Assembly: GCF_014647455.2 (NCBI RefSeq)
Contig: NZ_BMPF01000001.1
Span: 310,001-374,000, forward strand
DNA from: Halarchaeum grantii
Lineage (GTDB): Archaea; Halobacteriota; Halobacteria; Halobacteriales; Halobacteriaceae
DNA length: 64,000 nt
Reading direction: 5' to 3'
Part shown: piece by piece, positions 9,796-24,388 of the stretch
Position numbering within the stretch: position 1 is the stretch's first letter
Layout of the letters: every line of letters starts with the position of its first letter
Position numbers and translations under genes: made by a program
Notes under the pieces: model-generated
Database searches by the model: none
What the model was told of the DNA's origin: nothing
Seen by the model: the letters and a program-made list of their open reading frames with translations, nothing else

Positions 9796-9869
9796 GGGCC
9801 GGTAGCTCAGTTAGGCAGAGCGTCTGACTCTTAATCAGACGGTCGGGGGTTCAATTCCCTCCCGGCCCG
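9796..9869 (+). tRNA. tRNA-Lys (anticodon CTT)
   Basis: A 74-nt cloverleaf is present. Acceptor GGGCCGG (9796-9802) pairs perfectly with CCGGCCC (9862-9868). The D stem is GCTC/GAGC. The anticodon stem TCTGA/TCAGA encloses loop CTCTTAA with anticodon CTT. The T arm GGGGG-TTCAATT-CCCTC follows. The discriminator is G9869. CCA is not encoded. There is no intron. The 3' part is the attachment site of the adjoining integrative element, and the gene stays intact because the element restores the 3' end. Confidence 0.97.
9842..9869 (+). repeat. attL: 28-bp core shared with the tRNA-Lys 3' end
   Basis: The last 28 nt of the tRNA, from the variable loop through the discriminator base, are repeated exactly at 24361-24388. 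After one or two mismatched bases both copies continue with TTCCTGAAG. This is the classical signature of tyrosine-integrase insertion into a tRNA 3' end. Confidence 0.93.
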
Positions 9870-10212
9870 CTTCCTGAAGGACTGATGCCGAGTTAGACCG
9901 TTAGCGGCTGAACTGGTTACTGATAGGGGTTAGAGCAACTACAACCTTGTGGAACCCCCGGTATTTTGGCGTCAGTTCATCACGAACCTACCGCGCATCG
10001 TCGTCCTCCGGTGGTTTTGGTTCAGCCGAAAACGGTGTCTCTCTGCATCGAGTCAATTCTGTCGCGCGCGAGGATTCGGCCTCGGTGATACACCCAATAT
10101 CTGATTTTGTGGCTTCCACCCGACCTAAGAGGACGCTCCTACAGACTACCAGCAGATAGGTGATCGAATACTACCTGTTCCTTGTTCAGGCTTTGACCCC
10201 ACCAGAAGTCGG
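9870..10212. other. gene-poor left end of the integrative element
   Basis: No convincing gene is found here. A 70-codon plus-strand frame (9947-10159) is Ser/Arg-rich and lacks any recognisable motif or haloarchaeal acidity. The segment may hold integrase arm-binding sites, but no clear repeat is visible. Confidence 0.5.
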
Positions 10213-10464
10213 TCAGAGATCATCACTCGCGTTCCGCTGTTCCGCACACCAATCGAGAATCTCCTCACGGAGATTGTCAGGCGTCGGCCCGAACAGTCGT
10301 CCAAGCCGCCAGCCGAGGTTGTTCCACGTCAGTTCTTCGAGTACTCCTTCGTACTCTTGCCCCTCAACCGCGCGTGTCCAGCCCTGCTTGAAGTTTCGTC
10401 GGCGTCCGTCGGTCAAGTCCTTGCGCTTGTCCTCCTCGTACGTGAGGCCCTCCAAGTCGAACAT
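10213..10464 (-). CDS. small hypothetical protein
   Basis: The 83-aa product is charged and shows regular amphipathic segments (EGLTYEEDKRKDLTDGRRRN, then WNNLGWRLGRLFG), which argues for a real folded protein. It has no Cys and no membrane helix. I do not recognise a named family. It is divergent from the GNAT-like gene with only about 30 nt between starts, so promoters must overlap coding DNA if both starts are right. Confidence 0.6.
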   Translation of the reverse strand: MFDLEGLTYEEDKRKDLTDGRRRNFKQGWTRAVEGQEYEGVLEELTWNNLGWRLGRLFGPTPDNLREEILDWCAEQRNASDDL

Positions 10465-10497
10465 GGCGAACTCAACATTTCAGAAGAAGACTCATCA

Positions 10498-10857
10498 ATG
10501 CTTGCCCCCACGTTGAATCCAGAGATGACCTTAGCCGACGAGATCGAGGAAGTGGAGCCGGAGGAAGTGCGCCTCGATGAAGCGATGCTCGGCTACAACA
10601 TCTACGTGTGTGGCGAATACGCGGGTGCTATCGAAGGTGTACCCGGTTCGTTGGAGCATCTCGTAGTGGAAATGCATTGGGAGGGGAAGGGGGTGGGTCG
10701 AACGGCACTTCGTAAGTTCATCGAGCTGAGTCGTGCTGAGGGGTGTTCTGTTGTCACGACGAACAACGACGTGCATCCCGCGATGACGCATATCCTCGAA
10801 ACGGAGGGCTTCGAGGAGCAGACAGACGGTATTGGGTGGGAGAAGGAAGTTCAGTAA
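10498..10857 (+). CDS. GNAT-like N-acetyltransferase
   Basis: The 119-aa protein has the acetyl-CoA-binding motif A of GNAT enzymes in EMHWEGKGVGRTALRKFIE (the Q/R-x-x-G-x-G/A pyrophosphate loop), followed by a helix and a C-terminal strand-helix with TNNDVHPAMTHILETEGFEE. It is short for a GNAT and may be a minimal or partly reduced version. An internal ATG at 10525 is an alternative start; the frame also stays open upstream, overlapping the divergent small gene. The acceptor substrate is unknown. Confidence 0.6.
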   Translation: MLAPTLNPEMTLADEIEEVEPEEVRLDEAMLGYNIYVCGEYAGAIEGVPGSLEHLVVEMHWEGKGVGRTALRKFIELSRAEGCSVVTTNNDVHPAMTHILETEGFEEQTDGIGWEKEVQ

Positions 10858-10864
10858 TCTTCCG

Positions 10865-11230
10865 TCAGTAGATCAAGTGCGACTCCAGTTCCGAACGTAT
10901 CGCTTCCTGAGTCTCTCGTACGTTCTCCAGTCGGTGACTCACAGCATCGAGGTCGCTGTTACTCTCCTCGACTCCCTCGGCGATCTGCTCCAGTAGTTCC
11001 TGCTGTCGTTCGAGCATCGAACGAATTGCGGTCACGTCGTAGTCGGGTGAGAGCTGTTCGAGCGTGGCTGTCTCCTCCGCAATAAGGAGCTGAAGGAGTT
11101 CGGATTCGTTCCCGACCGCATCGTTGGCTTCGACGGCGGCCTCCAGCTTATCGCCCTGTTCGGGGGATAACGCCACCTCGATGAGTTCTGGCTCGTAGGG
11201 TGTCACACTCGCTCCTGCTCGGGCCACCAT
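10865..11230 (-). CDS. hypothetical coiled-coil protein
   Basis: This 121-aa acidic protein has a short N-terminal strand-helix segment (LIEVALSPEQGDKLEAAVEA) and a long C-terminal amphipathic helix from about residue 65 to 118, likely a coiled coil. The N-terminus could suit a ribbon-helix-helix-like or small dimerisation fold, but no DNA-binding signature is certain. The convergent GNAT-like gene ends 7 bp away. Confidence 0.62.
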   Translation of the reverse strand: MVARAGASVTPYEPELIEVALSPEQGDKLEAAVEANDAVGNESELLQLLIAEETATLEQLSPDYDVTAIRSMLERQQELLEQIAEGVEESNSDLDAVSHRLENVRETQEAIRSELESHLIY

Positions 11231-11622
11231 GTAAATCGTTGGTCAACAACACATCAAGGGCGGCGAAAAAGCCCCCATACGCCCACAATTAGTAGACGCA
11301 GAACGCCGGGATTTTCGCCGTCTCAGCGACCCAAAATCGGAGTGAAATCACCCCAATTTCGCAGAGCGGCTTACCTATCTGCACGCCCTACGGGGGGTGG
11401 GTGATGTTCTAACCGGTGGTTAGACAATTGTCGTACTCTTTCGCGTGTACCCTACACTCTCTGCGACGTGGTGCTGTACGGTTTCTTAGACGGGTTTCGG
11501 TGGGAAGATTATGCTTCCCCACTTGTAGAGTTGCGGAGCTTCTGTATCGCTCTGCTGTGGCTTCTGATGGGCTACGATCTGGTGGGAAGTGAGGGAGTTG
11601 TTCGTCACGGTCGAGCGGGGGG

Positions 11623-11796
11623 CATACACAGTAGTAGTACTGTTGTAGTTCACCGTATGGTTCACAACTCAACTGGACACTCAAACGGACTAATCAAGTG
11701 ACTTAACGCATAGAGGGGCAGTAGAACAGCTAACGATATAGAATAGAGTATGACCGTATTACTGTTGTCTCAATCAGTACTATACTACTGTGTATG
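11623..11796. repeat. 14-bp inverted repeat pair
   Basis: CATACACAGTAGTA at 11623-11636 has its exact reverse complement at 11783-11796. The arms are 146 bp apart and continue imperfectly through GTAC-containing sequence on the inner side. Confidence 0.7.
11697..11718 (+). repeat. dispersed 22-nt motif, copy 1
   Basis: The motif is GTGA, four variable bases and the core ACGCATAGAGGGG. It matches copies at 18370-18391 and 19142-19163. All three lie outside genes in the element. Confidence 0.65.
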
Positions 11797-12148
11797 GTCG
11801 GGGGTAGTACTCCGATCAACCTACCTCAGTTACCAACGGGTTGGGCAGTAGGTTCCACGGTAGAGAACCACGACTACCGAGAAGACATTATAGGTTCGAC
11901 AAATGTCTAAATAGTATTGTTCTTGGGTACCGTGGAGATTGCAGTCTCGTCTGGCTCAACCAGATAATAACACCCGCACATACTCAACCGGGCTATAGGG
12001 TTCGACCAGAACCGCTCATCTTGCGACCATAGTCGAAGATCAGAGTCGTATCGGCAGTCGTTTTCAGCCATCGACTGCCAGCGAAACTATCCATACTCCG
12101 ATCTTCAGTGAGGGGGTAGCGAGTGAGCGACCGATGTGAGTCGAACAA

Positions 12149-12170
12149 GCCCTCGATGCGGTGATTCCGA
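12149..12170 (-). repeat. dispersed 22-nt motif, divergent copy
   Basis: The reverse complement carries CGCATCGAGGG with a partial upstream match, about 16 of 22 positions against copy 18370. It is followed by CGGTGATTCCG, which also adjoins the copy at 18503. Confidence 0.4.
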
Positions 12171-12221
12171 TGGCACAGGAGCCTTCGGGAAGTCCGAGGA
12201 TACAAGAAGCGAACAAGACCG

Positions 12222-12243
12222 CGTGATCTACCGCATCGAGGTC
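12222..12243 (+). repeat. dispersed 22-nt motif, divergent copy
   Basis: CGTGATCTACCGCATCGAGG matches the motif except at a few positions including the last two bases. Confidence 0.4.
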
Positions 12244-12300
12244 AAGAACGGTCAGATACACGACTTCCGACAACACGATCTCCGACCGCCGAGAGAGTCG

Positions 12301-13023
12301 TCAGAGGTCGTCCTCAGAGAAGATCAACCGAGCGCTGTTGTCGGTGAGCCACTCCGAGTGCGCTTCGTACTCAGGGTCATGCTCGGCTACGAGTGACCAG
12401 AACTCCGAGCTGTGGTTCGCCTCACGGAGATGGGCGAGTTCGTGAACGACGACGTAGTCAACGATCTCCGGCGGAGCCATCATCAGTCGCCAATTTAGGC
12501 CGAGTGTTCCGTTCGAGGAGCAACTCCCCCACTTGGTACGCTGGTTCCGAACCTCGATCTGCTCGTACCCAACGCCCATCCGTTCTGCGAAGTAGTCCGT
12601 TCGTCGCTCGAACCGTTGGCGGGCATTTCTCCGGTATAGCGTTTCCAAAGCGCGCTCAATGGATGTATCCTCGACGTGGTGTTTCGCAAGCCGAAGCATG
12701 CCGTCAACAACGCTCGATGAAGGACGCTGCTCGACGACAACCTCGTGTTCCTCTCCGAGATACGGGAACGACTCACCCGCCTCGAATCGTCGCTCAGGAA
12801 CTTGGTCGCGGTACTTCTCGAACCCTCTCGTCTTTTCGACTACCCACGCGGCGTTGTCGCGGAGAAGCTCGTCCGGAGTGACTGCCGGAAACTCGGGAAG
12901 GACGACGGTGACACCGTGAATGTCCACGTCGATGCGAGGGTTCGAGGCGTCCGAACTATGGCGCACGTCGTACTCGATGGCGTTCCCAAGCAGGTCGATT
13001 TCGTGGAGTTGGGCTTTAGCCAT
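12301..13023 (-). CDS. YgjP-like zinc metallopeptidase (DUF45/M48-like)
   Basis: The 240-aa product is a cytosolic gluzincin-type metalloprotein. The zinc motif HELAH is at residues 194-198 with a third ligand candidate His204, and the family signature RTKWGSCSSNGTLGLNWRL precedes it. YgjP/DUF45 genes often accompany type I restriction loci; their role there is not established. The ATG overlaps the hsdR stop by 8 nt (ATGGCTAA), so it is the last gene of the hsd operon. Confidence 0.87.
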   Translation of the reverse strand: MAKAQLHEIDLLGNAIEYDVRHSSDASNPRIDVDIHGVTVVLPEFPAVTPDELLRDNAAWVVEKTRGFEKYRDQVPERRFEAGESFPYLGEEHEVVVEQRPSSSVVDGMLRLAKHHVEDTSIERALETLYRRNARQRFERRTDYFAERMGVGYEQIEVRNQRTKWGSCSSNGTLGLNWRLMMAPPEIVDYVVVHELAHLREANHSSEFWSLVAEHDPEYEAHSEWLTDNSARLIFSEDDL

Positions 13024-15970
13024 GGTTACGGATGAGGTAGTTCCGGAGCGCGTCCACGAAGTCGTCGTTCCGAATCAGGTGGCCGAGATCGTACTGCTTG
13101 ACCATTACGTCCAGCAGGATACGCTCGATCTCCGAGATGGTCTGCTGGTTCGTCTTCCAGCCCGGATAGTCGCGGTCAACACGGTCGTTGAACTGTGAGA
13201 CGATCTCCTCGGCTATCGCTTCCGCTTGCTCCTCGGACTCGATTGCGTCGGGTGTCTCCTCCGTGAGGTGCGTGTAGATGGCGAACTCGGCGTCGTCCAT
13301 CCCCTGCTCCTCGGCATCTTCTTCGACGCGCATCACCGCGTCCTCAACCGACTTCAGGGCCTCCACAGCATCCGGGTCACTGATCTGGTCGTTCTGCCAG
13401 CGTTCGACTATATCGGTCACGCGCTCACTCAGCCGTTTGTATCGTGGATTCTGGTTCTCCCGGGGATGGAGATGTTCCCGAGTAGCGTGAGCGATCTGCG
13501 ACGCTTTCACACCGGGGTTGTCGAGGTCTTCAACGTCTTCGAGGTACTCCTCCCCGAGCTTGTAGGTGGGGAAGTCACGCTTTATCTCCGTGATTTCGAC
13601 GTTGTCGCTGATTATCTCCCGCGTCTTCTCCCGCATATCCTCCTCAGGGTCGTCCTCTCCCGATGTGGTTCGCGTGAACGCGACGTGAATCCGACTCAGC
13701 CACTTGTAGTCCTGCTCGATGCCTTCGGTCACGAGACGGCCATCCGGCGCGACGGCCTCGTAGAGATTCTGGAGGCGACGGAACCCCTGCTTGAACTCGC
13801 GACGTTCGGGGTGGGTGCTGACCCGGTTGACCGCCTCGTAGGTGGCTTCCTGCGTGTCGGTTTTCGGAACCCCGTCGAAGATGGTCATCACCGACTCGAC
13901 TTGCTCGACGAGGTCGTCGAACAGCTCGTCCTTGTCGCGGGCGGCGTAGGCTTTCGTCTCGGCGTCGTAGTCCAGCGCCTCGTCGATGTTCTCGAAGACG
14001 CCTTGGAAGTCCACGATCTCCCCGTTCTCCTTGCCCGGTGCAGGCCGGTTCGTTCGGGCGATAGCCTGCATGAGGTTGTGGTTCTTCAGGTTTCGGTCGA
14101 GGTACATCGTCTTCAGTATCGGCGCATCGAAGCCCGTCAGGAGCATGTTGTGGACGACGAGCAGTTCCGGGCCTCCATCTTCCTTGAACGCCTTGACGAT
14201 GCTGTCACGCTCCTCAGAATCCGTGTGGAACTGCTCGATCAAGTCGGGGTCGTCCTTCGTCGCCGTGTAGAGGACTTCGACAGCATCCTCCCCACGCCGC
14301 TCGATGAGTCGTTCCCCGTACATCGCCGCCGACCGACGACTCGGTGTGACGACCATCCCCTTCCAGCCGTTCGGCGCGACGTGTTCCGCGTAGTGGTGGT
14401 CGATCTCATCGACGGCGCGGTCAACACGCGGCTCGATCTCCGCGAGCGTCGTCGCGTTCACGTTATCGCGGATGAACTCGCGTTTCTCGTCGGTCGTCAT
14501 CCCACGGAAGTTCTCCTCGAACTCCTCGTCCAATCCCGCCTCGTCGATCTCCCACTCCATCTCGTGACGGAGCGTGAAGTACACGGGAAGAATCAGACCG
14601 TCCTCGATGCCGCGTTTCACGGAGTAGCGATGCAGGTAGTCCTCGCCCTCGGGGGAGAACTCGCGGAACGTGTTCTTGTCCTTCTCGCGTTCTCCCTCCT
14701 GAACAGGCGTGCCGGTGAAGCCGAAGTGATAGCAGTCGGGTAACGCCGCATCGAGGCGGCTCCCAAGATCGGCCTCCATGAAGCGATGGGCCTCGTCGGA
14801 CATGACGATGACCTCGTCGTTGCCCTGCACGTCGGGGTCAACGTCCTCGAACTTCTGGATGGTGGTGAGAACGAGTTCGCTCTGCCCTCGCTCGATGAGT
14901 TCTTGCAGGTGGTCGATGCTCTCCGCTTCCGTCCACCGTTCGAGGGAGAGGTTCGCCAGCTGGTCGCGCATCTGGCTGTTGAGCTTGTCCGTATCGACGA
15001 TGATGAACACCTGCGGGTTCTGCGCCACGTCGCGCTTCAGGAGGTTCTCGGCGGCGTAGAGCATCGTGAAGGACTTCCCCGACCCTTGGGTGTGCCAGAT
15101 GAGTCCGCGCTTGTGTTCGCCCTTCTGGACGCGGTCGAGAATCCGGTTCACCGCGTAGTACTGCATGTAGCGCGGAACGATCTTCGCGTCCCCGCCAGCT
15201 CGCCGTTCGTAGAAGACGAAGTTCTTCAGCAGATCGAGGAGCGTCTGCGGGTTACAGAGCGCGTTCACCGCCTGCCGCATCTCGTTGTCGTCCTCGAACT
15301 TCGCGGGGGCGTCGTTCCACGGTTCGTAGAACTCTCGGGGAGCGCCGACAGCACCGTAGCGCAGTTCCATCGTGTCGGCGGCGACGTTGAACAGCCCGGG
15401 AGAGAACAGTCGCGGTACGTCGTCTTGATAGGCCAGCAGGTCGCTGACGGCGTCGTGCCAGTCGTTATCCTGCGCGACGCTCTTGAGCTCCATCGTCACG
15501 AGCGGAATCCCGTTCACGAACAGGGATACGTCCGGGCGGATGGTTGTCTCCCGGGAGACGGAGAACTGATTCACCGCATGGAAGCGATTCTTCTCGGGGT
15601 TCTCGTAGTCGATCAGGTCAACGTAGACCGTCTCAGTTGTGCCGTCGTCGCGCTGGACGGTGAAGGTCTTCCCCTTGGTGAGAAGCTGGTGGAACGCCCG
15701 GTTGCCGTCCATGAGGTTCTCCGCATCGAGGTCGCGCTTCAGCGAGGAGACGAACTTCTCCACGTTCTCCTCGGTCACGTCCTCGTTGAGTGCGACGACC
15801 TGCTCCGCGAGGAGGTTCCAGTAGACGACCTCGTGGTTGCTCCGTTCGTAGGCGTCATCAAGGACTTTCGCGCCTCTGTCCCCGTCTTGTCCGTGGGTTT
15901 CCCATCCGACGCCGTCGAGCCACGAAAGAAGCGAGCGTTCGACGCCGTACTCGGATGGGGTACTAACCAT
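13016..15970 (-). CDS. hsdR: type I restriction enzyme, R (endonuclease/translocase) subunit
   Basis: At 984 aa this is a full-length HsdR, the DNA-cleaving motor of a type I restriction complex. The N-terminal PD-(D/E)xK nuclease is seen as Asp147 and Glu161-x-Lys163 (RPDVSL, TMELKS). The SF2 motor follows with Walker A TQGSGKS (Lys299), SDEAH at 391-395, and motif VI QAIARTNRPAPGK. A C-terminal helical region should contact HsdM. The start overlaps hsdS by 8 nt. Unlike hsdS, it has the same high GC as the 5' part of hsdM. Confidence 0.96.
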   Translation of the reverse strand: MVSTPSEYGVERSLLSWLDGVGWETHGQDGDRGAKVLDDAYERSNHEVVYWNLLAEQVVALNEDVTEENVEKFVSSLKRDLDAENLMDGNRAFHQLLTKGKTFTVQRDDGTTETVYVDLIDYENPEKNRFHAVNQFSVSRETTIRPDVSLFVNGIPLVTMELKSVAQDNDWHDAVSDLLAYQDDVPRLFSPGLFNVAADTMELRYGAVGAPREFYEPWNDAPAKFEDDNEMRQAVNALCNPQTLLDLLKNFVFYERRAGGDAKIVPRYMQYYAVNRILDRVQKGEHKRGLIWHTQGSGKSFTMLYAAENLLKRDVAQNPQVFIIVDTDKLNSQMRDQLANLSLERWTEAESIDHLQELIERGQSELVLTTIQKFEDVDPDVQGNDEVIVMSDEAHRFMEADLGSRLDAALPDCYHFGFTGTPVQEGEREKDKNTFREFSPEGEDYLHRYSVKRGIEDGLILPVYFTLRHEMEWEIDEAGLDEEFEENFRGMTTDEKREFIRDNVNATTLAEIEPRVDRAVDEIDHHYAEHVAPNGWKGMVVTPSRRSAAMYGERLIERRGEDAVEVLYTATKDDPDLIEQFHTDSEERDSIVKAFKEDGGPELLVVHNMLLTGFDAPILKTMYLDRNLKNHNLMQAIARTNRPAPGKENGEIVDFQGVFENIDEALDYDAETKAYAARDKDELFDDLVEQVESVMTIFDGVPKTDTQEATYEAVNRVSTHPERREFKQGFRRLQNLYEAVAPDGRLVTEGIEQDYKWLSRIHVAFTRTTSGEDDPEEDMREKTREIISDNVEITEIKRDFPTYKLGEEYLEDVEDLDNPGVKASQIAHATREHLHPRENQNPRYKRLSERVTDIVERWQNDQISDPDAVEALKSVEDAVMRVEEDAEEQGMDDAEFAIYTHLTEETPDAIESEEQAEAIAEEIVSQFNDRVDRDYPGWKTNQQTISEIERILLDVMVKQYDLGHLIRNDDFVDALRNYLIRNHG

Positions 15971-16763
15971 GACGGAGGATATGTTCTGGTATTTCTATAT
16001 CTTTGTTGTTCGTTCTAACTCTTCCTGAGAAAAGGTCGTCCATAAGACCACGCTTTAGTTGGATGAGTTTCCCTTTATATCGCTTTTCACCACGGTGAAT
16101 ATCCGCTTTCCCGGCGATCTCGTTAGTCTTTTTAATTGTACTGTCAATATTATTTAAAATAGTTGCTATCTTGCGCTGTTCTTCTAAGGGAGGAAGAGGA
16201 ATCAATAACGAGGCGTATTCGCCAGTATTGATGTTTGATTGTGCTGTCGTTTTCGCACGGCGACGAATCCAATCCCAATAGCGCTCACTAAGCGTGTATT
16301 GTAATATATATTGATTGTTAACACCTTGCTCAACCAGTCGGTGCCGGATTGAGTAGCCACCAAAACAACACTCTCCGTCAGTAGGGTCATATAAATACGT
16401 TTTTCCGAGTGACGCCCCTACTGAACCACTCCGTGCGAAGAGCAAGTCGCCTTCCTCTAAGATGCCATCCACAGCTTTATCTTCGGAAAGGCTTGCCAGA
16501 CTATCGTCCTGAAGTCCTCCAAAATCATCAAAATCTTGCGTCCTGATGTATCGAGGTTTCTCAGGGTCGTACTCCTCTGCTGATTCAGTAAGTCCGTATT
16601 CGGTTTCAAGCGTGACATCTCCTAACCGAACCGCGTACCAGTCCTCGGGAATATCCCCGACAGAGGTTTCATCAAGGCTCGATTTTACGGAAGACTTCGG
16701 TAGATCTTCGATGGTATTCTCTTTGTCACCAGTAAACTCATTCAATGTTCGTTCGTTACTCAT
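15963..16763 (-). CDS. hsdS: type I restriction-modification specificity subunit, half-size
   Basis: This 266-aa protein sets the DNA target of the complex. It has one target-recognition domain (about 40-190), ending in the typical LIPLPPLEEQRKIATIL junction, and one conserved helical spacer (about 195-250). Standard HsdS proteins are 400 aa or longer with two such units. It has a normal start and stop and overlaps both neighbours by 8 nt, so it looks intact and not truncated by decay. Half-size S subunits can work as dimers and then recognise a symmetric bipartite site; that is inference here. Sampled GC is about 45%, far below hsdR. Confidence 0.9.
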   Translation of the reverse strand: MSNERTLNEFTGDKENTIEDLPKSSVKSSLDETSVGDIPEDWYAVRLGDVTLETEYGLTESAEEYDPEKPRYIRTQDFDDFGGLQDDSLASLSEDKAVDGILEEGDLLFARSGSVGASLGKTYLYDPTDGECCFGGYSIRHRLVEQGVNNQYILQYTLSERYWDWIRRRAKTTAQSNINTGEYASLLIPLPPLEEQRKIATILNNIDSTIKKTNEIAGKADIHRGEKRYKGKLIQLKRGLMDDLFSGRVRTNNKDIEIPEHILRHG

Positions 16764-18258
16764 AGTTAAGCACCTCCAGGTGATTGTCTATCGTTTCTTC
16801 GAGACTCTTACGCTCCTTCTGGAGCCTATGTAACTCCGACCATTCTTCTTTGACATTGATGTCCGGACGTGGCTCAGTTGTGTCAACATATAGGGATACA
16901 TTCAGATTATAATCATTTGCTTGTATTTCATCAATACCGACAACACGGCTAATGCGGGGTTCGTCTGACCATGTTCTGAAATTCTCAACAATATTATTTA
17001 ATCCCTTTTCGGTAAGCTCGTTTTGATTAGAAAGTTCTCGATAGAACCCCTCAGACCCTGCATAAGCGAAGAATATCTGGTCTTTCTTCGCCTCGGGCTT
17101 ATCCGTATTCAGGACTAAGATGGCTGAAGGGATGGAAACATTTTGGAATAGATTGTCGGGCAATCCAACAATTGCCTCAACATAGTCTCTATTAACCATC
17201 GGCTTTCGATAGCGGTCTTCGTTACTTCTAAATAACACACCATTTGGAATGAGGATTGCGGCCTTCCCGCCAACGCCGTCCTGATCGGGGCGCTTCAACT
17301 GCTTCGCCATGTGCATGATGAAGGCGTAGTCGCCTCGGTCGGCACGCGGGAGCTTCTCGTGCCAGTCGAAGCGCCCGTAGGGGTCGTCTTGGAGGTCGTC
17401 TTTCGCCCAATCAGCCGAGAACGGGAAGTTAGCAAGCACGCGGTCAAAGCGCGTGAGTTCGTTCTCCTCGTCGTTCGTGAACGCGGGGTTGGAGAGTGAA
17501 TCCTCGCGCTGTATCTCTCCATCGAGGCCGTGTATGGAGAGGTTCATCTTCGCAATCGCGGCAATGTCCGGGTTGATCTCCTGCCCGGTGAACGTCATCT
17601 TCGAGGGGTCGCCGCCTTGTTCCTCGCGGTAGTACCGCGCCGCCTCGATGAGCATCCCACCGGAGCCAACGGTCGGGTCGTGGAACGTCATGCCGTCCTC
17701 GAAGGAATCGACGAGCCGAACGCAGAGGTTGACGATGTGCGGTGGCGTGAAGAACTGCCCGCCGGACTTGCCTTCTTCCTCCGCGAAGTGCCGCACCAAG
17801 TCCATATACGCCTCTCCGAGCATATCCGGCGGAACGCTGTCGCGGTCAAGGTCGTACTGTGACAGGTGTTCGATCAGCCGCCCGAGTCGGTCGTCATCGA
17901 GGGCGTCGGCGTCGATGTAGTCAGCTCGAAAGACGCCCTGAAGCTGAGGGTTCTCCTCGACGAGTGCGTCGAAGGCCTCATTCAGCGCTTGATCGACGTT
18001 GTCGGAGACGGCGCGAAGGTCGTCCCACAGGTAGCCTTCGGGGACGATGGGAATGTCGTAGAGGTTCTCGCGCCGGGCGAACTCCTCGCCGTACTCCTCG
18101 GCGTTTTGCTCGTACTGTACCTCGAACTCGTCGGAGATCGACTTGTAGTAGACGAGTGGGAGGATGTATTCCTTGTAGTCGGTGGGGTCAACGGCGTCGC
18201 GGATTATGTCCGCGCATTTGAATAGGTGAGATTCGAGGTCGTCAAGTGAGATGGGCAT
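16756..18258 (-). CDS. hsdM: type I restriction-modification methyltransferase subunit
   Basis: HsdM (500 aa) is the N6-adenine methyltransferase of the type I complex. The N-terminal helical HsdM domain (about 5-140) precedes the catalytic domain with SAM motif DPTVGSGG (194-201) and catalytic motif IV NFPF (277-280). The N-terminal two thirds are about 65% GC, but from about nucleotide 17260 to the end (residue about 333 onward) GC drops to about 43%, like hsdS. A TATA box 24-31 nt upstream makes the ATG at 18258 a leaderless start. Confidence 0.96.
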   Translation of the reverse strand: MPISLDDLESHLFKCADIIRDAVDPTDYKEYILPLVYYKSISDEFEVQYEQNAEEYGEEFARRENLYDIPIVPEGYLWDDLRAVSDNVDQALNEAFDALVEENPQLQGVFRADYIDADALDDDRLGRLIEHLSQYDLDRDSVPPDMLGEAYMDLVRHFAEEEGKSGGQFFTPPHIVNLCVRLVDSFEDGMTFHDPTVGSGGMLIEAARYYREEQGGDPSKMTFTGQEINPDIAAIAKMNLSIHGLDGEIQREDSLSNPAFTNDEENELTRFDRVLANFPFSADWAKDDLQDDPYGRFDWHEKLPRADRGDYAFIMHMAKQLKRPDQDGVGGKAAILIPNGVLFRSNEDRYRKPMVNRDYVEAIVGLPDNLFQNVSIPSAILVLNTDKPEAKKDQIFFAYAGSEGFYRELSNQNELTEKGLNNIVENFRTWSDEPRISRVVGIDEIQANDYNLNVSLYVDTTEPRPDINVKEEWSELHRLQKERKSLEETIDNHLEVLNYE

Positions 18259-18289: not shown

Positions 18290-18331
18290 CTGCGGTGAAG
18301 TGCGATGGTGATAGACGCGAAAAGTCCCCGC

Positions 18332-18352: not shown

Positions 18353-18369
18353 ACGGGAGAGGAGTACAG

Positions 18370-18391
18370 CGTGACTCAACGCATCGAGGGG
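18370..18391 (+). repeat. dispersed 22-nt motif, copy 2
   Basis: CGTGACTCAACGCATCGAGG continues with GG. It differs from copy 1 and copy 3 at a few positions in the variable part and one base in the core (A to C). Confidence 0.65.
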
Positions 18392-18502
18392 GAGTGTGGA
18401 AATATCTGGTAGGAGCGGGGCAGATGGTAGAGAATGGAAGAAAGTAGTATATGATCGAATCGTGGGGAATAGCGTTATAGGATAGGTGTTCCGGTGATTC
18501 CG

Positions 18503-18524
18503 CACCTCGATGTGTTGATTCACG
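18503..18524 (-). repeat. dispersed 22-nt motif, inverted copy
   Basis: Read on the minus strand it matches copy 2 at 19 of 22 positions. It directly follows the 11-mer CGGTGATTCCG at 18492-18502, also found at 12159-12169. Confidence 0.5.
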
Positions 18525-18905
18525 GTGTGATCTGCTCAAGTGTTCTAACCCGTGATTCTCAAGTTGCAAACCCCCCCCATGCTCCCCCAATCCGGGGCTG
18601 TTGCTCTGGCCGCTCGTTCACGTAGGGACTTTCTGAGCCTATTTTACCGTCGTTACACGCGTTACAGCGCGCACGGTTCGGAACCGCTCAACCTAAGAGG
18701 CGTTACTGCCGGCGACTCATCGAGCGCAAGGTCTTGTGTTCGCCTCTTTGCTCTCTGCCGACAGCCCCTCACCATCCAGTTGTTACTACGAGCGTTGATG
18801 GATACCCCGACTCGAAGGTCAGGACAGCCACCATAGCCTTGACGAGCAAATCGCTTGCCGAAATTTCACCGGCCACCATTCCGCAGAATCGTTCGTCGAA
18901 CTCAG

Positions 18906-19115
18906 CTACGTCGAATCAACCAGCCGAGTGTTACCTCGGTCAAGCCATTCCCGATAGTCGCCAGTACAGACACTACAGAGGTAATACTCGAACGTCTCTG
19001 CTTCCGGGAGATGGTCTTCCGGGTTGTTCGTCTGGCTGATCTCTACGTGCGAGTCGTAACTGTCGAACGTATTGCCGCACCGCTCACAGGGTCGAAGAAG
19101 ATCGTGTTCAGGCAT
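18906..19115 (-). CDS. small CxxC zinc-finger protein
   Basis: This 69-aa protein has two CxxC pairs, CERCGNTF at residues 10-17 and LCSVC near residue 46-50, which should bind one zinc ion. It is acidic, without membrane segments, and resembles the many small CPxCG-type proteins of haloarchaea. Its function is unknown. It lies alone between hsdM and the helicase gene, in a region otherwise without genes. Confidence 0.72.
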   Translation of the reverse strand: MPEHDLLRPCERCGNTFDSYDSHVEISQTNNPEDHLPEAETFEYYLCSVCTGDYREWLDRGNTRLVDST

Positions 19116-19141
19116 CGTTATCGAAAGGACGTGACTGATCG

Positions 19142-19163
19142 AGTGATCAAACGCATAGAGGGG
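19142..19163 (+). repeat. dispersed 22-nt motif, copy 3
   Basis: AGTGATCAAACGCATAGAGG continues with GG. The core is identical to copy 1. Confidence 0.65.
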
Positions 19164-19382
19164 AAGGAGACTAACAACGAGTGGAAGACTGAACGAGTAT
19201 TCCGAATCGCTGTTTCTACTCCGCTCGGTCTATGCGTGAAGACACGAGAGGAGTCACCGGGTTCTCCACCGTGCTTCTACCTTCCTACACTCCTATTAAT
19301 GGTAAAGGGTTAATATACCACCCCCGGAGTTTATAAGTAAAGTATAATGTAATTGGGTTGTTTTGGGGCGAATACCGCCGAT

Positions 19383-19420
19383 AACGGCCAATTTCGCGTG
19401 AAACGGCCAATTTCGCGTGA
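19383..19420 (+). repeat. two perfect tandem 19-bp repeats (iteron-like)
   Basis: The unit AACGGCCAATTTCGCGTGA occurs at 19383-19401 and again directly at 19402-19420. Its core CCAATTTCGC occurs once more in the element at 11353-11362. Such repeats beside a replication-type gene are typical of initiator-binding iterons. Confidence 0.85.
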
Positions 19421-19504
19421 TTTTGTCGGTTCATCGTTCTCGCGCGCGGTTGCCGGTTTACGAAGTTCCGCGTATAGGGTACGAACGTCAGAGTTCGGAA
19501 ACCC

Positions 19505-21355
19505 CTACTCTATGCGCCCGAACACGGAGAAGTCCTCCAGCCGCTCGTTCGACCAATGGTACGCGTTCCCGCGTCCACCACGTCGATGGGTTACGTAACC
19601 CTCCTCGTCCAGCTCCTTCATCAGCTCGCCAACCTGCCGTGTCGTCACGGACACCGACTCCGCGATCTCACCGTTCGTCCACTCACCATCCGGCCACTTC
19701 TCCGAGCTACGTAATGCCTCCACGACCTCCTGCATCCCCTTCGACCACGTCGTCACGTCTACTCGCTCATCTGCCTCAACCCATCGAGGGAGGCGAGAGG
19801 TGTGAACGTACACCCTCGCTCCATGCTTTCCATCGCTCTCGGTTCGACCGAATCGCATGACTGCTTGAAGGACTTCGTACTCGGCAACGTCTCTAAAGAG
19901 CGCGTTTCCGAGCGGCCCGAAGTCGAGATCAACACCCTTCGTGATTCTCCCCTCGTCGTCCGTCTTCCTCTCGACAGCGTCCCCGTTCAATGCACCCCAT
20001 CGCTGAACTGCTTCACCCTCAGGAGGATGCGGGCTTCCAATCACCACCCCAAGTCGCGTCTCCTCGAACTCGTTACTTCCCTTCAGGTTGCCGTAGTGTT
20101 CAGCGACCTCGATGTGTCCGTCCACCTCGGTTGATTCGTACTGCTCTTTCGCTTGCTTCGACGTGATAACCGACGGTCGGTGTCCCTCTCGGCTGTGGAT
20201 GTTCTCCAAGAGCGCGCCGTCCGACCTGACGTTCACGTTGTTCCCGCTCTGATAGGGTTTCGCGCCGCCGTCGGTCTGAATGATTTCGAGGCCGAGAACG
20301 TCCCGTAGGTATTCTCGCTTCTCTCGATCAGAGTTCAAGACTGGCTCATGCACTATGTAATCGCCGCCGAGGACGAGACGCCACTTCGTAAGCGTCGGTG
20401 TCCCATCGAGCGCAACAACGCTCTCAGCCGCATAGAGGGGCGGTGGAATCAGTACCGTCCACTCGTCCTCGGGACTCCGAACGGCCTTCCGTCCAGACCC
20501 GAGGTTCGCGTACTCCCACTCGTTGTCCAGTAGCTCGAACTCAAGACCAGCATGGGTAAGGAGCGGAGCATGAGCGTGAAATCCGGGTTTCCGCTGTAAC
20601 TGGACGCGGGTGTCGCGGTGGGAATAGAACCCAAGGTCGTCCTTCCACTCTCGGACAGCGTCCTCGTGTTCGTCGTTGTTGCGTCGCCGAATAAGGTCTT
20701 TCCAGTTCTTGAATGGAAGCCTTTCCTCGGCATTTAGGTAGTTCCTGATCGCTCTCGTCGCCTCATTATGCGTCGGCGTGAAGAAGTACGCATCTCCGGG
20801 GAACTCGTCGAACGCGACGTAGCGATCTTCGAGATAGTCGCGATTGTGAGCCTGAAGGTAGTGGCCGATCAGCACATCATAGTTCTCGGGACTGAAATCC
20901 CTGCTCTCCATGTACGGACACCGTCCATCGTGCTGGCTGGGTAGTCGCTCCCCGAAGTACCGTTCCGCATCACGATGGAGTTGTGCGCCCGAAATGCCGG
21001 ACGCATAGACCTCGCGTACCTCCGCCTCGATGGAGTCTTTCGCAGGTGGTGATTCTCGCTCGTGATCTATCGTCCCGCACTCTCGATGGAACGCCGGGAG
21101 AGTTCGGTGTGATAGCCCGCGATCAACACACCAGTCTTCGTACTGGCCGTACAGTTCGCTTCGAGCTGTGAATACAGTAAGCGGGCGGCCCGTGTCCTCG
21201 GCCCATTCGACGACGCCGTAGCTCTTGCCCATAGCTGGAAGCGCCTCGATGAGTGTTTTCTCGTCGTTGCGAAACGCATCTCGGAGTGCCGTGGCGAGAC
21301 GATCACGGACGCTATCGAGTGATAGCTCCGACCGGGTATCCGTAAATAGGCTCAC
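19505..21355 (-). CDS. XPD/DinG-like SF2 helicase with C-terminal winged helix
   Basis: I infer a helicase for this 616-aa protein from several patterns. A Walker A-like loop LPAMGKS is at 39-45. A CPY motif (Cys146) is followed by a hydrophobic strand and then VAFDEFPGD, with acidic Asp183-Glu184 at the DEAH position, an arrangement like XPD/Rad3 proteins after their Fe-S domain. Late in the protein, LQAVMRFGRTESDG resembles motif VI. Only three Cys (76, 93, 146) precede the DE pair, so an intact 4Fe-4S cluster is doubtful. Residues about 555-605 form a winged helix (TNGEIAESVSVTTRQVGELM). The adjoining iteron-like repeats suggest a role in element replication. Confidence 0.65.
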   Translation of the reverse strand: MSLFTDTRSELSLDSVRDRLATALRDAFRNDEKTLIEALPAMGKSYGVVEWAEDTGRPLTVFTARSELYGQYEDWCVDRGLSHRTLPAFHRECGTIDHERESPPAKDSIEAEVREVYASGISGAQLHRDAERYFGERLPSQHDGRCPYMESRDFSPENYDVLIGHYLQAHNRDYLEDRYVAFDEFPGDAYFFTPTHNEATRAIRNYLNAEERLPFKNWKDLIRRRNNDEHEDAVREWKDDLGFYSHRDTRVQLQRKPGFHAHAPLLTHAGLEFELLDNEWEYANLGSGRKAVRSPEDEWTVLIPPPLYAAESVVALDGTPTLTKWRLVLGGDYIVHEPVLNSDREKREYLRDVLGLEIIQTDGGAKPYQSGNNVNVRSDGALLENIHSREGHRPSVITSKQAKEQYESTEVDGHIEVAEHYGNLKGSNEFEETRLGVVIGSPHPPEGEAVQRWGALNGDAVERKTDDEGRITKGVDLDFGPLGNALFRDVAEYEVLQAVMRFGRTESDGKHGARVYVHTSRLPRWVEADERVDVTTWSKGMQEVVEALRSSEKWPDGEWTNGEIAESVSVTTRQVGELMKELDEEGYVTHRRGGRGNAYHWSNERLEDFSVFGRIE

Positions 21356-21615
21356 GCTGTGAATACTGTAGCTGGTTCGATACCGGGATTAAAATCTATG
21401 GAATCAAATCGACAGACGCAACGGGTAAAGTGCGCCATAGAACAACTCGAATACTCCCCCTGTGATTCGCAAATCGTTACATGCAGGTTGTCAACCGAAA
21501 ACCGCCATTAATCATATATTTAAATGGTAGAGCTTCGAAGGGTCGTTGCGTATATTCCACGCTTCTTCGACAGCCCTTCGTTTTATTATTCCACATGCTT
21601 GAACTCATTCTTGCC

Positions 21616-21972
21616 ATGTCTAAATCAGAAACTGACGGGAGGGGCTTTGACATTTTGGAGTCGACCCAAGGAGACCGTGTGAGGGTGAATCAGGAAGAAT
21701 ACGAAGTGACGAGGAAAATCCATCTCCGAGATACAGATACCGACGACTACACAGACGACATTTACGGCGTTAGCATGAAGAAAGAAAATACCCGGTATAG
21801 AATATACGTCCATCCGGCCTCAATGGAAAACCACAACTGGATTTCCGAAATTTATCTATGGGCAGGAAGAGTCCTGAAGGAGCCAGTAGAAGAATTCAAC
21901 CGGTTAGATGAGGGTACGAATCAGAGGGTCTCTCGAGAACGATACAAAGAGATGTGGAGCCAAGACGGGTAA
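21616..21972 (+). CDS. hypothetical protein of the integrative element
   Basis: The 118-aa product has alternating strand-like segments (DRVRVNQEEYEVTRKIHLR, then NTRYRIYVHP) and a terminal helix. No family is recognised. The ATG at 21616 is preferred over one at 21481 because TTTTATTA lies about 32 nt upstream and the extra residues are hydrophobic and atypical. Codon use is AT-richer than the chromosome, consistent with transfer. Confidence 0.58.
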   Translation: MSKSETDGRGFDILESTQGDRVRVNQEEYEVTRKIHLRDTDTDDYTDDIYGVSMKKENTRYRIYVHPASMENHNWISEIYLWAGRVLKEPVEEFNRLDEGTNQRVSRERYKEMWSQDG

Positions 21973-22099
21973 AATCAATAGAATATCCTACTTAATCCGG
22001 AATTCTCGATGCCGCCCGACACTCAAAGCCGCCAAGTTTGCACGCTTACCTACCAGCTGATTCCGACCACAGCTGTTGAGACGAATACCACGATGACGG

Positions 22100-22654
22100 T
22101 TAGACACACGAAGCCGATTCTTCGTGACCGGGAAGGATACCACTACTCTGAGACTGCTCCATACAATGCGTACAGAGCGGAACCGATTCACGCCAGTCCT
22201 CAGGAACCTCCGAGAGGGGCGTGAGTGTATCGAAGGTTGGATACGGAACCTCGCGGGGTAGTAGTCCGACCCGTTTCTCGCCCTCTATGATTTCGGGTGA
22301 CGGGATATTCGCGTCAGTTCGGCAGATCGTCGCCCCACCTTGAACGATGTGAGAGCGATAACTACGGTTTTCGCCGTCACCCTCCCATCCGTTCGAACCA
22401 TCGCGCTCATAGAGAAGGTACGGGCTGTCACGTCCATCGTAGAACCCACGGCGCTTGAACTCGTACGACCACTCAACGCGTACCAGCTCAAGATCGTCAT
22501 CGTCCCATCCGTCACCAGCATACTGACAGTAGAGGCCGTAGGTCTTATCGCGAGATACCCACCAATCGTGGCCCGAGAAGTCAATCACCCGCTCAAAGTC
22601 CATCGGTAGCGCCTCGCCCTGCGATGCGTCCGGCTCATCGAAGTTGTCAATCAT
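22100..22654 (-). CDS. hypothetical acidic protein
   Basis: This 184-aa protein is acidic and Trp/Tyr-rich (HDWWVSRDKTYGLYCQYAG, LVRVEWSYEFKRRGFYDGR), suggesting a beta-rich domain. The C-terminus carries CTHCM, but no second CxxC pair is nearby. I do not recognise a family. The frame antisense to it (22009-22224) looks like a shadow. Confidence 0.6.
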   Translation of the reverse strand: MIDNFDEPDASQGEALPMDFERVIDFSGHDWWVSRDKTYGLYCQYAGDGWDDDDLELVRVEWSYEFKRRGFYDGRDSPYLLYERDGSNGWEGDGENRSYRSHIVQGGATICRTDANIPSPEIIEGEKRVGLLPREVPYPTFDTLTPLSEVPEDWRESVPLCTHCMEQSQSSGILPGHEESASCV

Positions 22655-23257
22655 CAGTAAATCACCACATGGAGTCGGCGGCTTTCGTCGCGGCCCTGAT
22701 GGTCGAGATCAACCATTTTGAGGCCTTGTTCGCTCATATTCACAATACGGACTACCCCGATATAATACTTATCAAATATAATACTAAAGGCTTGGAGTTG
22801 GCACTTCCGTCTTTATCCTGCATCAGGCATCTCCCACCAGCCACACCAAGAAAAACTACTCTCGACTATCAGGAGATCAGCCCATCCTGTCGAGAGCGTC
22901 ACGATGATCTTCGACCGGAGCCTGATCGTACTTCATCGTCGTCTTGGCCCGCTTGTGACGGAGCTGTGACTGCGCGTCGGCGAGTCCCTTCCTCCCGTGA
23001 GATATACGCCCTTCAAACGGAAGGTGACTTCATCGAGGCGGGTTCTCCCCCACTCAATTCTGTGACTCCCACGGAGGATTACGTTACTCGTTGCAGGCCT
23101 GTGTGAAGTCAAAACGGCTCGCTTGGAGTACGCTATTACTCTCTGTGGTCAACTTCCCCCTCCATGCGTTCTTCTCTTTCTTCCGGAACCCCGAAATATC
23201 GGCCAACACTCCAAACTCCGAAAAACAAGTGGTAAGAAATCGGGAACGGCTCTATCG
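22655..23257. other. 603-bp region with decayed DNA between hypothetical gene and integrase
   Basis: It contains the integrase remnant at 22877-23029 and an AT-rich stretch near 22740-22800. I find no intact gene. The remaining frames are short and lack haloarchaeal composition. Confidence 0.5.
22877..23029 (-). pseudogene. C-terminal remnant of a second tyrosine recombinase
   Basis: The minus strand encodes an open stretch ending in GLADAQSQLRHKRAKTTMKY and then DQAPVEDHRDALDRMG before a stop. This is the usual C-terminus of XerC/D-like integrases, with the box II His in LRHK and the catalytic Tyr in MKYD. No N-terminal or central domain is joined to it, and a stop lies just upstream at 23030-23032. 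A neighbouring frame stays open further upstream, which may be the rest after a frameshift. It is probably a relic of an earlier integrase. Confidence 0.65.
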
Positions 23258-24280
23258 TTAGATGTTATCGAAGTAGCCGCGACGATTCTTCATTTGCTGT
23301 TCTTTCGTCCGTTTGTCGTAGTGCTTTTTCAGTACATCGGCACTCACGTCCATTCGTTCCGATACGGCCTCGATTGGTACGTCACTCCTTCGTGCGTGCG
23401 TTATTGCGCCTTTCCGAAGGGAGTGCGAAGCGTGTGATGATGGACATTTTGAGGCGGCATGGTAAGAACTGGCCGCGTCACAGTCCTCTGGCTCACGGTC
23501 GTGAGGGCAGTCAAGCCCGTAATCGCAAGGTCGGGTAGTACGGTAGCAGTTGCTTCGGATAGAGGTCTTCGAGATACGTCCTTGGCGGGTCGTCAGTAGC
23601 GGCTCACGACCGAACTCGTCAACCTTGGAGAATCGGTGATGGTCGATGTAATCCGCCACGATCTGGTTCACGTTGGGCTTGAGAGAGACAACACGCTCAC
23701 CCGCCTTCCCATTTTTCAGCGGAGTATCTTCATCGGGGCGGTGATGGACTTCGAGAGTCCGTTTTTCCGTATCGTAGTCATCGAGGTCGATTGCTCGGAG
23801 CGCGCCGTTTCGCATCCCGGTATGCCACAGTAACTCGAAGATGACGTGTTCGCGCTGTGAGTAGTTGAATTTCCGCTGGTATTCGATGATGGTTTGTGCG
23901 GTTTCGGCGTCAACGTAGTCATCGTTCACGTCCTCTTTGTTCTTCATCGTCGGCGGGTCGATGTAGTCCGACAGACCGGAACGAACCGCGTCAATACTCT
24001 CGCAGAAGGCAATGAAGACCTTGAGGGTACTCAGTTGGGTCGCCATTGTGACCTTGTTGCAGTCGCCCTTCTCTCGACGCCATTTCTTGTACCGATGGAA
24101 GTGCCGACCGCTGAGGTCGTTCATATTCGTCACGCCACCCTCGGTGTTACACCACTCAATGAAGGGAGATAGCCGGTACTTGTGCGCCCGGTAAGTGGCG
24201 TCGGCAAGTTCGCCACGGCGGTTTTCGAGATACCATTCTTTCGCTTCCTGCGGTTCGATCGGCTGGAGTTCGTTTGTCAT
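23258..24280 (-). CDS. int: tyrosine recombinase/integrase of the element
   Basis: The 340-aa protein is the likely enzyme for insertion into tRNA-Lys. A SAM-like core-binding domain (about 10-110) precedes the catalytic domain. Catalytic residues seen are Arg157 (HTGMRNGALR), His286-x-x-Arg289 (SHSLRKG) and Tyr321 (KKHYDKR). The usual second His of box II is not evident; the matching stretch is ERMDVS. A Cys-rich insert at 246-279 (NCYRTTRPCDYGLDCPHD) may bind zinc. The gene is intact and reads away from attR, 81 bp inside it. Confidence 0.93.
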   Translation of the reverse strand: MTNELQPIEPQEAKEWYLENRRGELADATYRAHKYRLSPFIEWCNTEGGVTNMNDLSGRHFHRYKKWRREKGDCNKVTMATQLSTLKVFIAFCESIDAVRSGLSDYIDPPTMKNKEDVNDDYVDAETAQTIIEYQRKFNYSQREHVIFELLWHTGMRNGALRAIDLDDYDTEKRTLEVHHRPDEDTPLKNGKAGERVVSLKPNVNQIVADYIDHHRFSKVDEFGREPLLTTRQGRISKTSIRSNCYRTTRPCDYGLDCPHDREPEDCDAASSYHAASKCPSSHASHSLRKGAITHARRSDVPIEAVSERMDVSADVLKKHYDKRTKEQQMKNRRGYFDNI

Positions 24281-24338
24281 TGGTGGGCCTCGCGCTCAGC
24301 ACACCAACAGCGACACCTCGGTAATCCTCCTGCCCGGA

Positions 24339-24353
24339 GGCGCTAAAAGCGCC
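24339..24353. repeat. short hairpin beside attR
   Basis: GGCGCT-AAA-AGCGCC forms a 6-bp stem-loop 8 bp before attR. It may be an integrase accessory site or a terminator; neither can be decided. Confidence 0.35.
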
Positions 24354-24360
24354 GGAGGGC

Positions 24361-24388
24361 GTCGGGGGTTCAATTCCCTCCCGGCCCG
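24361..24388 (+). repeat. attR: partial copy of the tRNA-Lys 3' end
   Basis: An exact 28-bp copy of 9842-9869 is present. It is not part of any tRNA here because the preceding bases do not form the rest of a cloverleaf. Confidence 0.93.

What the first reader, a model, noticed from the sequence alone, without database searches (positions are those of the whole stretch)
9842..24388. tRNA-Lys-targeted integrative element carrying a restriction system and a possible replication module
Seen: exact 28-bp repeat of the tRNA 3' end at both ends, an intact tyrosine integrase inside one end, and lower GC throughout. Known: tyrosine integrases insert at tRNA 3' ends and restore them. Inferred: the island combines defence cargo (type I R-M plus YgjP peptidase), a helicase with tandem repeats, and no structural virus genes, so it may be an integrative plasmid that can replicate after excision.
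Basis: partly seen in the sequence, partly recalled or inferred. Interest (0 to 1): 0.72.

Follow-up and report, generated by a model that had tools for sequence, protein, structure and literature searches.

The report
tRNA-Lys integrative plasmid with restriction cargo
A 14.5-kb mobile DNA element sits exactly at the end of a lysine tRNA gene in a salt-loving archaeon; it belongs to a widespread, modular family that pairs one tRNA-specific integrase with swappable replication and cargo genes (here a type I restriction system), and it carries a dispersed DNA motif of unknown use that is almost absent from the host chromosome.

Summary
The 28-bp tRNA-Lys(CTT) 3' end is repeated exactly at 9842-9869 and 24361-24388, an intact integrase lies inside one end, GC is low throughout, and three congeneric genomes have the same tRNA without the island. 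The integrase is SNJ2-type (42% identity to SNJ2 Int), but att lies beside its start rather than its end. All nine other integrases of its >=80%-identity clade lie beside a tRNA-Lys-derived att copy; in the eight long enough to check, tRNA-Lys(CTT) lies at the other end. These elements share both att arms and int, yet carry different second genes (XPD/DinG-like helicase-wHTH or a 540-548-aa primase-like protein) and different cargo. The window's helicase is homologous to the C-terminal half of primase-helicases on free haloarchaeal plasmids of 8.9-23.7 kb. An integrative plasmid is therefore the best reading; excision and replication are inferred, not shown, and the window copy has lost one of four otherwise conserved cysteines. 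The cargo is HsdM-HsdS-HsdR-YgjP with a natural half-size HsdS. Unexpected: a 25-nt motif dispersed in intergenic gaps (15 copies in the element, none in 49.5 kb of flanks), recurring in related elements. It is the most novel part and unexplained.

The parts
9796..9870 (+). tRNA-Lys (CTT), target gene; 3' part regenerated by the element
   Evidence: ARAGORN, Rfam tRNA 70.8 bits
9842..9869 (+). attL: 28-nt tRNA 3' end
   Evidence: exact repeat
9871..10000 (.). left att arm, conserved in all nine tRNA-Lys elements aligned; read toward att it holds a promoter-like CCGAACCTTATAG block in several members (window: CACAAGGTTGTAG)
   Evidence: alignment, blastn
10498..10857 (+). GNAT-family acetyltransferase-like ORF (longer ORF begins at TTG 10357)
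   Evidence: Pfam PF00583 E=1.5e-4
10865..11230 (-). 121-aa putative coiled-coil protein, no convincing family
11698..11722 (+). dispersed motif copy, 30 bits
12145..12169 (-). dispersed motif copy, 22 bits
12223..12247 (+). dispersed motif copy, 23 bits
12301..13023 (-). YgjP-like metallopeptidase, last gene of the R-M operon
   Evidence: PF01863 E=1e-56
13016..15970 (-). HsdR, type I restriction subunit
   Evidence: TIGR00348 E=3e-147; 88-90% aa identity in two other elements
15963..16763 (-). HsdS, 266 aa with a single target-recognition domain (half-S); not conserved between elements
   Evidence: PF01420 at 39-214 only; full-size relatives are 447 and 461 aa; gap in DNA conservation
16756..18258 (-). 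HsdM, N6-adenine methyltransferase
   Evidence: PF02384 E=6e-81
18371..18395 (+). dispersed motif copy, 34 bits
18499..18523 (-). dispersed motif copy, 31 bits
18543..18884 (-). conserved noncoding block, 79% identical to the block between Rep and HsdM in the G142 element; indels break any frame; function unknown
19143..19167 (+). dispersed motif copy, 27 bits
19285..19319 (-). 35-40-nt promoter-like element (GGTATATTAACCCTTTACCATTAATAG), 94-97% conserved among this and two other elements
19383..19420 (.). two perfect 19-bp direct repeats downstream of Rep
19505..21355 (-). putative replication protein: XPD/DinG-like SF2 helicase with C-terminal winged helix
   Evidence: model pLDDT 78; Foldseek to XPD E=1e-13 and DinG E=7e-12; plasmid homologues
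21618..21972 (+). ORF of unknown function (first ORF start 21481)
   Evidence: no family
22100..22654 (-). 184-aa ORF of unknown function
   Evidence: no family
23258..24280 (-). SNJ2-type tyrosine integrase, reading away from att
   Evidence: 42% full-length identity to SNJ2 Int; PF00589 and PF02899
24281..24360 (.). right att arm between int start and att, conserved in the tRNA-Lys clade
24361..24388 (+). attR: second copy of the tRNA-Lys 3' end

Best explanation
A modular integrative plasmid-like element of haloarchaea. Shown: it occupies the 3' end of tRNA-Lys(CTT), rebuilds the tRNA and is bounded by the att repeats; its SNJ2-type integrase belongs to a clade whose members are all found at tRNA-Lys; both att arms and int are conserved across elements that otherwise differ; the R-M operon recurs in two elements at other tRNAs with different HsdS subunits. 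Inferred: Int joins the two ends into a 14.5-kb circle whose attP consists of left arm, core and right arm directly in front of int; the XPD/DinG-like helicase with winged helix acts as replication protein on that circle, using host primase and polymerase; the R-M operon with a half-S (which would dimerise and read a palindromic bipartite site) protects or stabilises the element. Because att lies upstream of int, integration separates int from the left arm, which may carry its promoter, so the circle and the integrated form could express int differently.
For: att repeat, intact Int and three empty congener sites. All nine >=80%-identity integrases from 391 genomes lie beside a tRNA-Lys-derived att copy, and in the eight with enough sequence a tRNA-Lys(CTT) gene lies at the other end; the next integrases are <=51% identical. 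Arms conserved on both sides of attP irrespective of cargo. Rep homologues: 37-41% identity over 88-98% on circular plasmids of 8.9, 10.8 and 23.7 kb, one long form with a DnaG-like N-terminus, relatives present in 115 of 391 genomes of the class, bounded by tRNA/att in many. In three sister elements with the same integrase the helicase is replaced by a 540-548-aa primase-like protein. No virus genes; no relatives in IMG/VR by pattern-based search or, for Rep, in the phage collection. Int and Rep are single-copy in the genome at the thresholds used.
Against: No circular junction could be looked for. Rep short forms were found only in chromosomes, large plasmids and draft contigs, not on a small free plasmid. 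The window Rep carries Ser at position 140 where 15 of 16 aligned sequences have Cys, at one of four cysteines placed like XPD Fe-S ligands, which may impair it. Some elements of the same integrase clade (L136, L138) show no recognisable replication gene, so replication may not be essential for spread.
Confidence: 0.7

Rival explanations
1. A non-replicating integrative island: Int can excise and reintegrate it, but it never replicates on its own; the helicase has another role (defence or maintenance) or is decaying.
For: Short Rep lacks the primase half of the plasmid homologues; S140 in place of a conserved Cys; some sister elements lack any recognised rep gene; a haloarchaeal pangenome study judged such integrase islands non-replicating remnants (PMC11078007).
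Against: The short form is intact and 70-73% conserved in five other genomes, so it is under selection; it is exchanged with a primase-like gene under the same integrase; homologues sit on true plasmids.
Confidence: 0.22
2. A provirus, provirus remnant or satellite of an SNJ2-like pleolipovirus.
For: The integrase family is shared with pleolipoviruses.
Against: No capsid, spike or packaging genes, no DUF7845 Rep-Arvir match, Rep absent from the phage collection and no relative found in IMG/VR, int oriented oppositely to att, dispersed motif absent from the SNJ2-type viruses scanned.
Confidence: 0.05
3. A stable genomic island that is no longer mobile and is kept for its R-M system.
For: Restriction systems can stabilise their carriers (established knowledge); the window element is the largest of its tRNA-Lys clade and has long noncoding gaps.
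Against: Int catalytic residues intact, both att copies identical and attP arms conserved, absent from all three congeners.
Confidence: 0.12

Closest known systems
SNJ2 / betapleolipovirus integration modules (SNJ2-type integrases; PMC8371274, PMC13107129)
   Same: Tyrosine integrase homologous over its full length (42%), insertion at a tRNA 3' end, intact int after integration.
   Different: Not a virus; att lies at the start of int, whereas in Humcor2 and Harhisp1 it lies just past the end of int and in SNJ2 excision joins int to the other end's operon (PMC13107129). No Rep-Arvir, no accessory orf2/orf3 between att and int, 28-bp rather than 13-15-bp core.
Small haloarchaeal plasmids with a primase-helicase (NZ_CP095486, NZ_CP100453, CP002990 phalar02)
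   Same: Their largest protein shares 37-41% identity over most of the window's Rep, with the same helicase-winged-helix order.
   Different: Their proteins are 1062-1312 aa with an N-terminal half that in one case resembles DnaG; on the two smallest, the annotated integrase is a different 212-aa-class protein; no tRNA-Lys att known.
Small archaeal integrated elements with arCOG07809 prim-pol/helicase/HTH proteins (Makarova et al. 2014, PMC4158269)
   Same: Small integrated elements without capsid genes, a helicase-HTH protein with or without a primase domain, described as uncharacterised.
   Different: Described there with a superfamily I helicase plus Zn finger; ours folds like XPD/DinG (SF2). 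Homology between the two was not tested.
XPD/DinG (Rad3) helicases
   Same: Best structural matches of the Rep model (E 1e-13 and 7e-12); cysteines between motifs I and II.
   Different: Only about 10-13% identity, TM 0.40-0.48, fused winged helix, no known role of this family as plasmid replication protein that I found.
Type I restriction-modification systems
   Same: HsdR, HsdM and HsdS in one operon.
   Different: Single-TRD HsdS where two sister systems have two TRDs; YgjP metallopeptidase as fourth gene.

Membership tests
SNJ2-type integrase family | >=30% identity over >=60% of the protein to SNJ2 family members (criterion of PMC8371274) | tested here: met
   42.1% over 100%
SNJ2-type integrase family | Phage_int_SAM plus Phage_integrase domains | tested here: met
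   PF02899 and PF00589
SNJ2-type integrase family | catalytic R..K..HxxR..Y | tested here: met
   R157, K189, H286, R289, Y321 invariant in six aligned members
SNJ2-type integrase family | att located at the 3' end of int (as in the viruses) | tested here: not met
   att 81 nt from the int start; same arrangement in 17 other records, 77-109 nt (287 nt in L100); not required by the published family definition
Betapleolipovirus or provirus | DUF7845 Rep-Arvir replication protein | tested here: not met
   no DUF7845 match in any of the ORFs scanned
Betapleolipovirus or provirus | structural and spike genes | tested here: not met
   no structural match in Pfam, PHROGs or NCBIfam for the ORFs scanned
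Integrative plasmid | site-specific integration with att duplication and empty sites in relatives | tested here: met
Integrative plasmid | replication protein homologous to that of free plasmids | tested here: met
   37-41% identity to proteins of three circular plasmids; that these are the plasmids' replication proteins is itself inferred
Integrative plasmid | excised circular form that replicates | not testable with these tools
   no reads or cultures available
ICE / IME | relaxase, VirB4 or coupling ATPase | tested here: not met
   no such family among the ORFs scanned
Type I R-M | HsdR, HsdM and HsdS subunits | tested here: met
Type I R-M | HsdS with two target-recognition domains | tested here: not met
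   one TRD, 266 aa; relatives 447 and 461 aa
XPD/DinG helicase | fold of XPD/DinG | tested here: met
   top Foldseek matches are XPD and DinG, probability 1.00, although rmsd is large
XPD/DinG helicase | four cysteines for the Fe-S cluster | tested here: inconclusive
   four near-invariant Cys in the family, but window has C76, C93, S140, C146; no metal assay and no structural check of their proximity
arCOG07809 integrated elements | homology to Mpal_2033 | not tested
   sequence not fetched; only the published description was read

The most novel reading that the evidence does not exclude
XPD/DinG-like helicases with a winged helix are an unrecognised class of archaeal replication proteins for a large family of integrative plasmids, and these elements are organised by a dispersed 25-nt motif (GTGATTCAACGCATCGAGGGG-type) that marks their intergenic regions for a protein shared by elements with different integrases and replication genes, for example in regulation, segregation or transfer.
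Probability: 0.35. Interest if true: 0.7.

Novelty: new variant of a known kind. Interest (0 to 1): 0.52.

Why it matters
Integrase islands of this sort are common in haloarchaea (Rep relatives in 115 of 391 genomes, Int relatives at E<=1e-100 in 130 of 391 genomes, in separate counts) and have been set aside as likely inert remnants because no plasmid hallmark gene was recognised (PMC11078007). If the helicase is a replication protein, many of those islands become living plasmids, and one laboratory test decides it. The tRNA-Lys clade shows one integrase with interchangeable replication and cargo modules, a clear natural case of plasmid modularity. The element-specific dispersed motif is a concrete handle on how such elements are controlled.

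Tried and rejected
Virus or provirus reading: no structural genes, no phage or IMG/VR relatives of Rep. Rep as the binder of the motif: weakened, since the motif also occurs in elements without this Rep (L134, L137, L138). Simple dyad CATCGAG-N-CTCGATG as a genome-wide signature: rejected; it also occurs across host genomes at 0-13 copies each, many of them probably in coding sequence because ATC GAG codes Ile-Glu. Noncoding block 18543-18884 as a known RNA: no Rfam match, folding no better than shuffles (z about 0 on both sequences); found in one other genome only. Primase-like 540-548-aa protein: no Pfam or PDB match; only a motif-level alignment to archaeal PriS (hhalign E=0.0014, probability 18%), so the assignment is tentative. 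Older att copy beyond the histidine-kinase gene at 24465-25910: none found. Rep truncated from a longer gene in this genome: rejected, since its 70-73% relatives are equally short.
Full report
What is there. tRNA-Lys(CTT) lies at 9796-9870. Its last 28 nt recur exactly at 24361-24388, 14,519 bp on; similarity runs about a dozen bases past the tRNA end. The next best match to the 28-mer in the window is 19/28. Between the copies GC is 0.44-0.61, outside 0.65-0.75. The ORFs include a GNAT-like protein, a putative coiled-coil protein, YgjP, HsdR, HsdS, HsdM, a 616-aa helicase-like protein, two unknown ORFs and a tyrosine integrase.

Empty site. In the three other genomes of the genus the gene upstream of the tRNA (8197-9660) and the tRNA itself are 89% identical, and metE follows within about 450-650 bp instead of 16 kb. 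In L031 the sequence after the tRNA (CCCGTTTTCCTG) matches that after attR, so attR is the chromosomal side. L030 and L032 carry an extra partial tRNA-Lys 3' end 135 and 109 bp downstream, read as scars of earlier insertions. A histidine-kinase gene just outside attR (24465-25910) is also absent at this spot in congeners; no further att copy was found beyond it.

Integrase. It is 42% identical over its full length to SNJ2 Int and has relatives on pleolipoviruses and haloarchaeal plasmids, with R157, K189, H286, R289 and Y321 conserved. In 391 genomes of the class, nine other integrases are 81-92% identical; the next are at most 51%. All nine lie beside a tRNA-Lys-derived att copy, and in the eight with enough sequence a tRNA-Lys(CTT) gene lies at the other end; the ninth contig ends inside int. 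These elements are 4-8 kb, so the window's 14.5 kb is the largest. att lies 77-109 nt (287 in L100) before the int start in the window and in 17 further records, two of which (L094, L097) are second copies of elements already counted. In the viruses Humcor2 and Harhisp1 the annotated attP lies just past the int stop, and in SNJ2 excision joins int to the operon at the other end (PMC13107129).

Conserved attP arms. Nine tRNA-Lys elements align over roughly 170 bp on the left of the core and about 80 bp on the right, although the genes next to these arms differ. The two arms are neighbours only in the circle. The left arm holds CCGAACCTTATAG in several members, which resembles a haloarchaeal BRE/TATA promoter reading toward int (inference; the window copy is diverged there, CACAAGGTTGTAG).

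Putative replication protein. Relatives are in 115 of 391 genomes. The closest five are 70-73% identical and equally short. Distant relatives form the C-terminal part of 1062-1312-aa proteins on complete circular plasmids of 8.9, 10.8 and 23.7 kb; one has a DnaG-like N-terminal stretch (PF08275 E=7e-5; weak PDB DnaG matches). The AlphaFold model (pLDDT 78) matches XPD (E=1e-13) and DinG (E=7e-12) best, and the profile's C-terminus matches winged helices. Walker A (LPAMGKS), DEFP, LDGTP and QAVMRFGR are conserved. Four near-invariant cysteines between motifs I and II suggest an XPD-like Fe-S cluster (inference); the window has Ser at the third. A pattern-based search of IMG/VR and tblastn of the phage collection found no relative.

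Modularity. With the same integrase and target, the second large gene is the helicase (window; L077 = Halolamina rubra; L140 = Halorubrum Hd13; a distant 23% version in L133) or a 540-548-aa protein (L134, L135, L137) that aligns weakly with archaeal primase small subunits at SG-R-xHVHV. Conversely the HsdM-HsdS-HsdR-YgjP operon recurs, 82-90% identical in HsdM and HsdR, in elements beside tRNA-Ala (L081) and near tRNA-Ser (L141, whose far att was not found). DNA similarity drops only over hsdS. Those two elements have full-size HsdS proteins (461 and 447 aa, two TRDs) while the window has 266 aa with one TRD but both conserved termini. Type I S subunits normally carry two TRDs (PMC3874165); a half-S would have to dimerise (inference from known half-S work).

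Dispersed motif. Repeats noticed led to a 25-nt motif, consensus GTGATTCAACGCATCGAGGGGGAGA. The matrix was trained on sites of the window element and L077. At >=14 bits the window element holds 15 and its 49.5-kb flanks none; 16 other elements hold 49 against 0.9 expected from dinucleotide shuffles (8 shuffles each), and their flanks 4 in about 0.2 Mb; a subset of 11 elements holds 48 against 0-3 with 20 column-permuted matrices. Limits: flanks are richer in GC, some weaker hits fall in coding sequence where ATC GAG (Ile-Glu) is common, and elements sharing genes are not independent. All six window hits of 22 bits or more are intergenic, in the two gaps that flank the R-M operon. In the whole 3.0-Mb genome a degenerate pattern with one mismatch allowed gives six sites, four in this element. 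The motif is absent from the SNJ2-type viruses and pHK2 and from elements L083 and L086-L088, and appears at most once above threshold in the remaining plasmids scanned; L084, L099 and L100 have none at 14 bits. It is present in elements with different replication genes and integrases, so its binder is probably not Rep. Function unknown.

Mechanism. Best supported: Int excises and integrates the element at tRNA-Lys; as a circle it is a 14.5-kb plasmid with the helicase as replication protein; the R-M system protects or stabilises it. Integration specificity and modular descent are shown by sequence; excision, replication, promoter switching and half-S dimerisation are inferred.

Novelty. SNJ2-type integrases at tRNA genes and R-M genes on haloarchaeal integrase islands are known (PMC8371274, PMC11078007), and small archaeal integrated elements with helicase-HTH proteins with or without primase domains have been described (PMC4158269). 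In the papers I could search I did not find the XPD/DinG-like protein named as a plasmid replication protein, the int-start att arrangement, the tRNA-Lys clade or the dispersed motif; many subscription papers were not available.

Noticed in passing
window 11698, 12145, 12223, 18371, 18499, 19143; also L077, L133, L134, L138, L076, L081 and others: 25-nt motif GTGATTCAACGCATCGAGGGG-type dispersed in intergenic regions of many integrative elements, in some as an inverted pair about 20 nt apart near TTCCGAAA and GGTTAGAACA; practically absent from host chromosomes.
   Followed up: partly
window 18543-18884 (-) and L141 5084-5427 (+): 350-nt noncoding block, 79% identical between two elements at different tRNAs, lying between Rep and HsdM in both; no Rfam family, no folding signal. 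Possibly an origin or an RNA.
   Followed up: partly
window 19285-19319 (-), L141 about 5036-5070, L073 about 11917-11952: 35-40-nt promoter-like sequence GGGTATATAAACCCTTTACCATTAATAGTAGTGTAG, 94-97% conserved in front of unrelated downstream sequences.
   Followed up: no
L030 and L032 (two congeners), 135 and 109 bp downstream of tRNA-Lys: Partial second copies of the tRNA-Lys 3' end without an element: scars of earlier integrations.
   Followed up: partly
window 24465-25910: Histidine-kinase/PAS gene immediately outside attR, of host-like GC, absent at this position in all three congeners.
   Followed up: partly
L073 about 9096, L075 about 11203: Two of the closest Rep homologues have no ATG, GTG or TTG near the start of the conserved region; start codon or expression unclear.
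   Followed up: partly
window Rep residue 140 (gene 19505-21355): Serine where 15 of 16 aligned homologues have cysteine, in a set of four near-invariant cysteines.
   Followed up: partly
L134, L135, L137: 540-548-aa protein of tRNA-Lys elements without Pfam or PDB match, with an SG-RSIHVHVP motif like archaeal primase small subunits; a possible unrecognised replication protein family.
   Followed up: partly
L077 about 5986-6015: A third, partial tRNA-Lys 3' end beyond the att of the Halolamina rubra element, again suggesting repeated use of the site.
   Followed up: no
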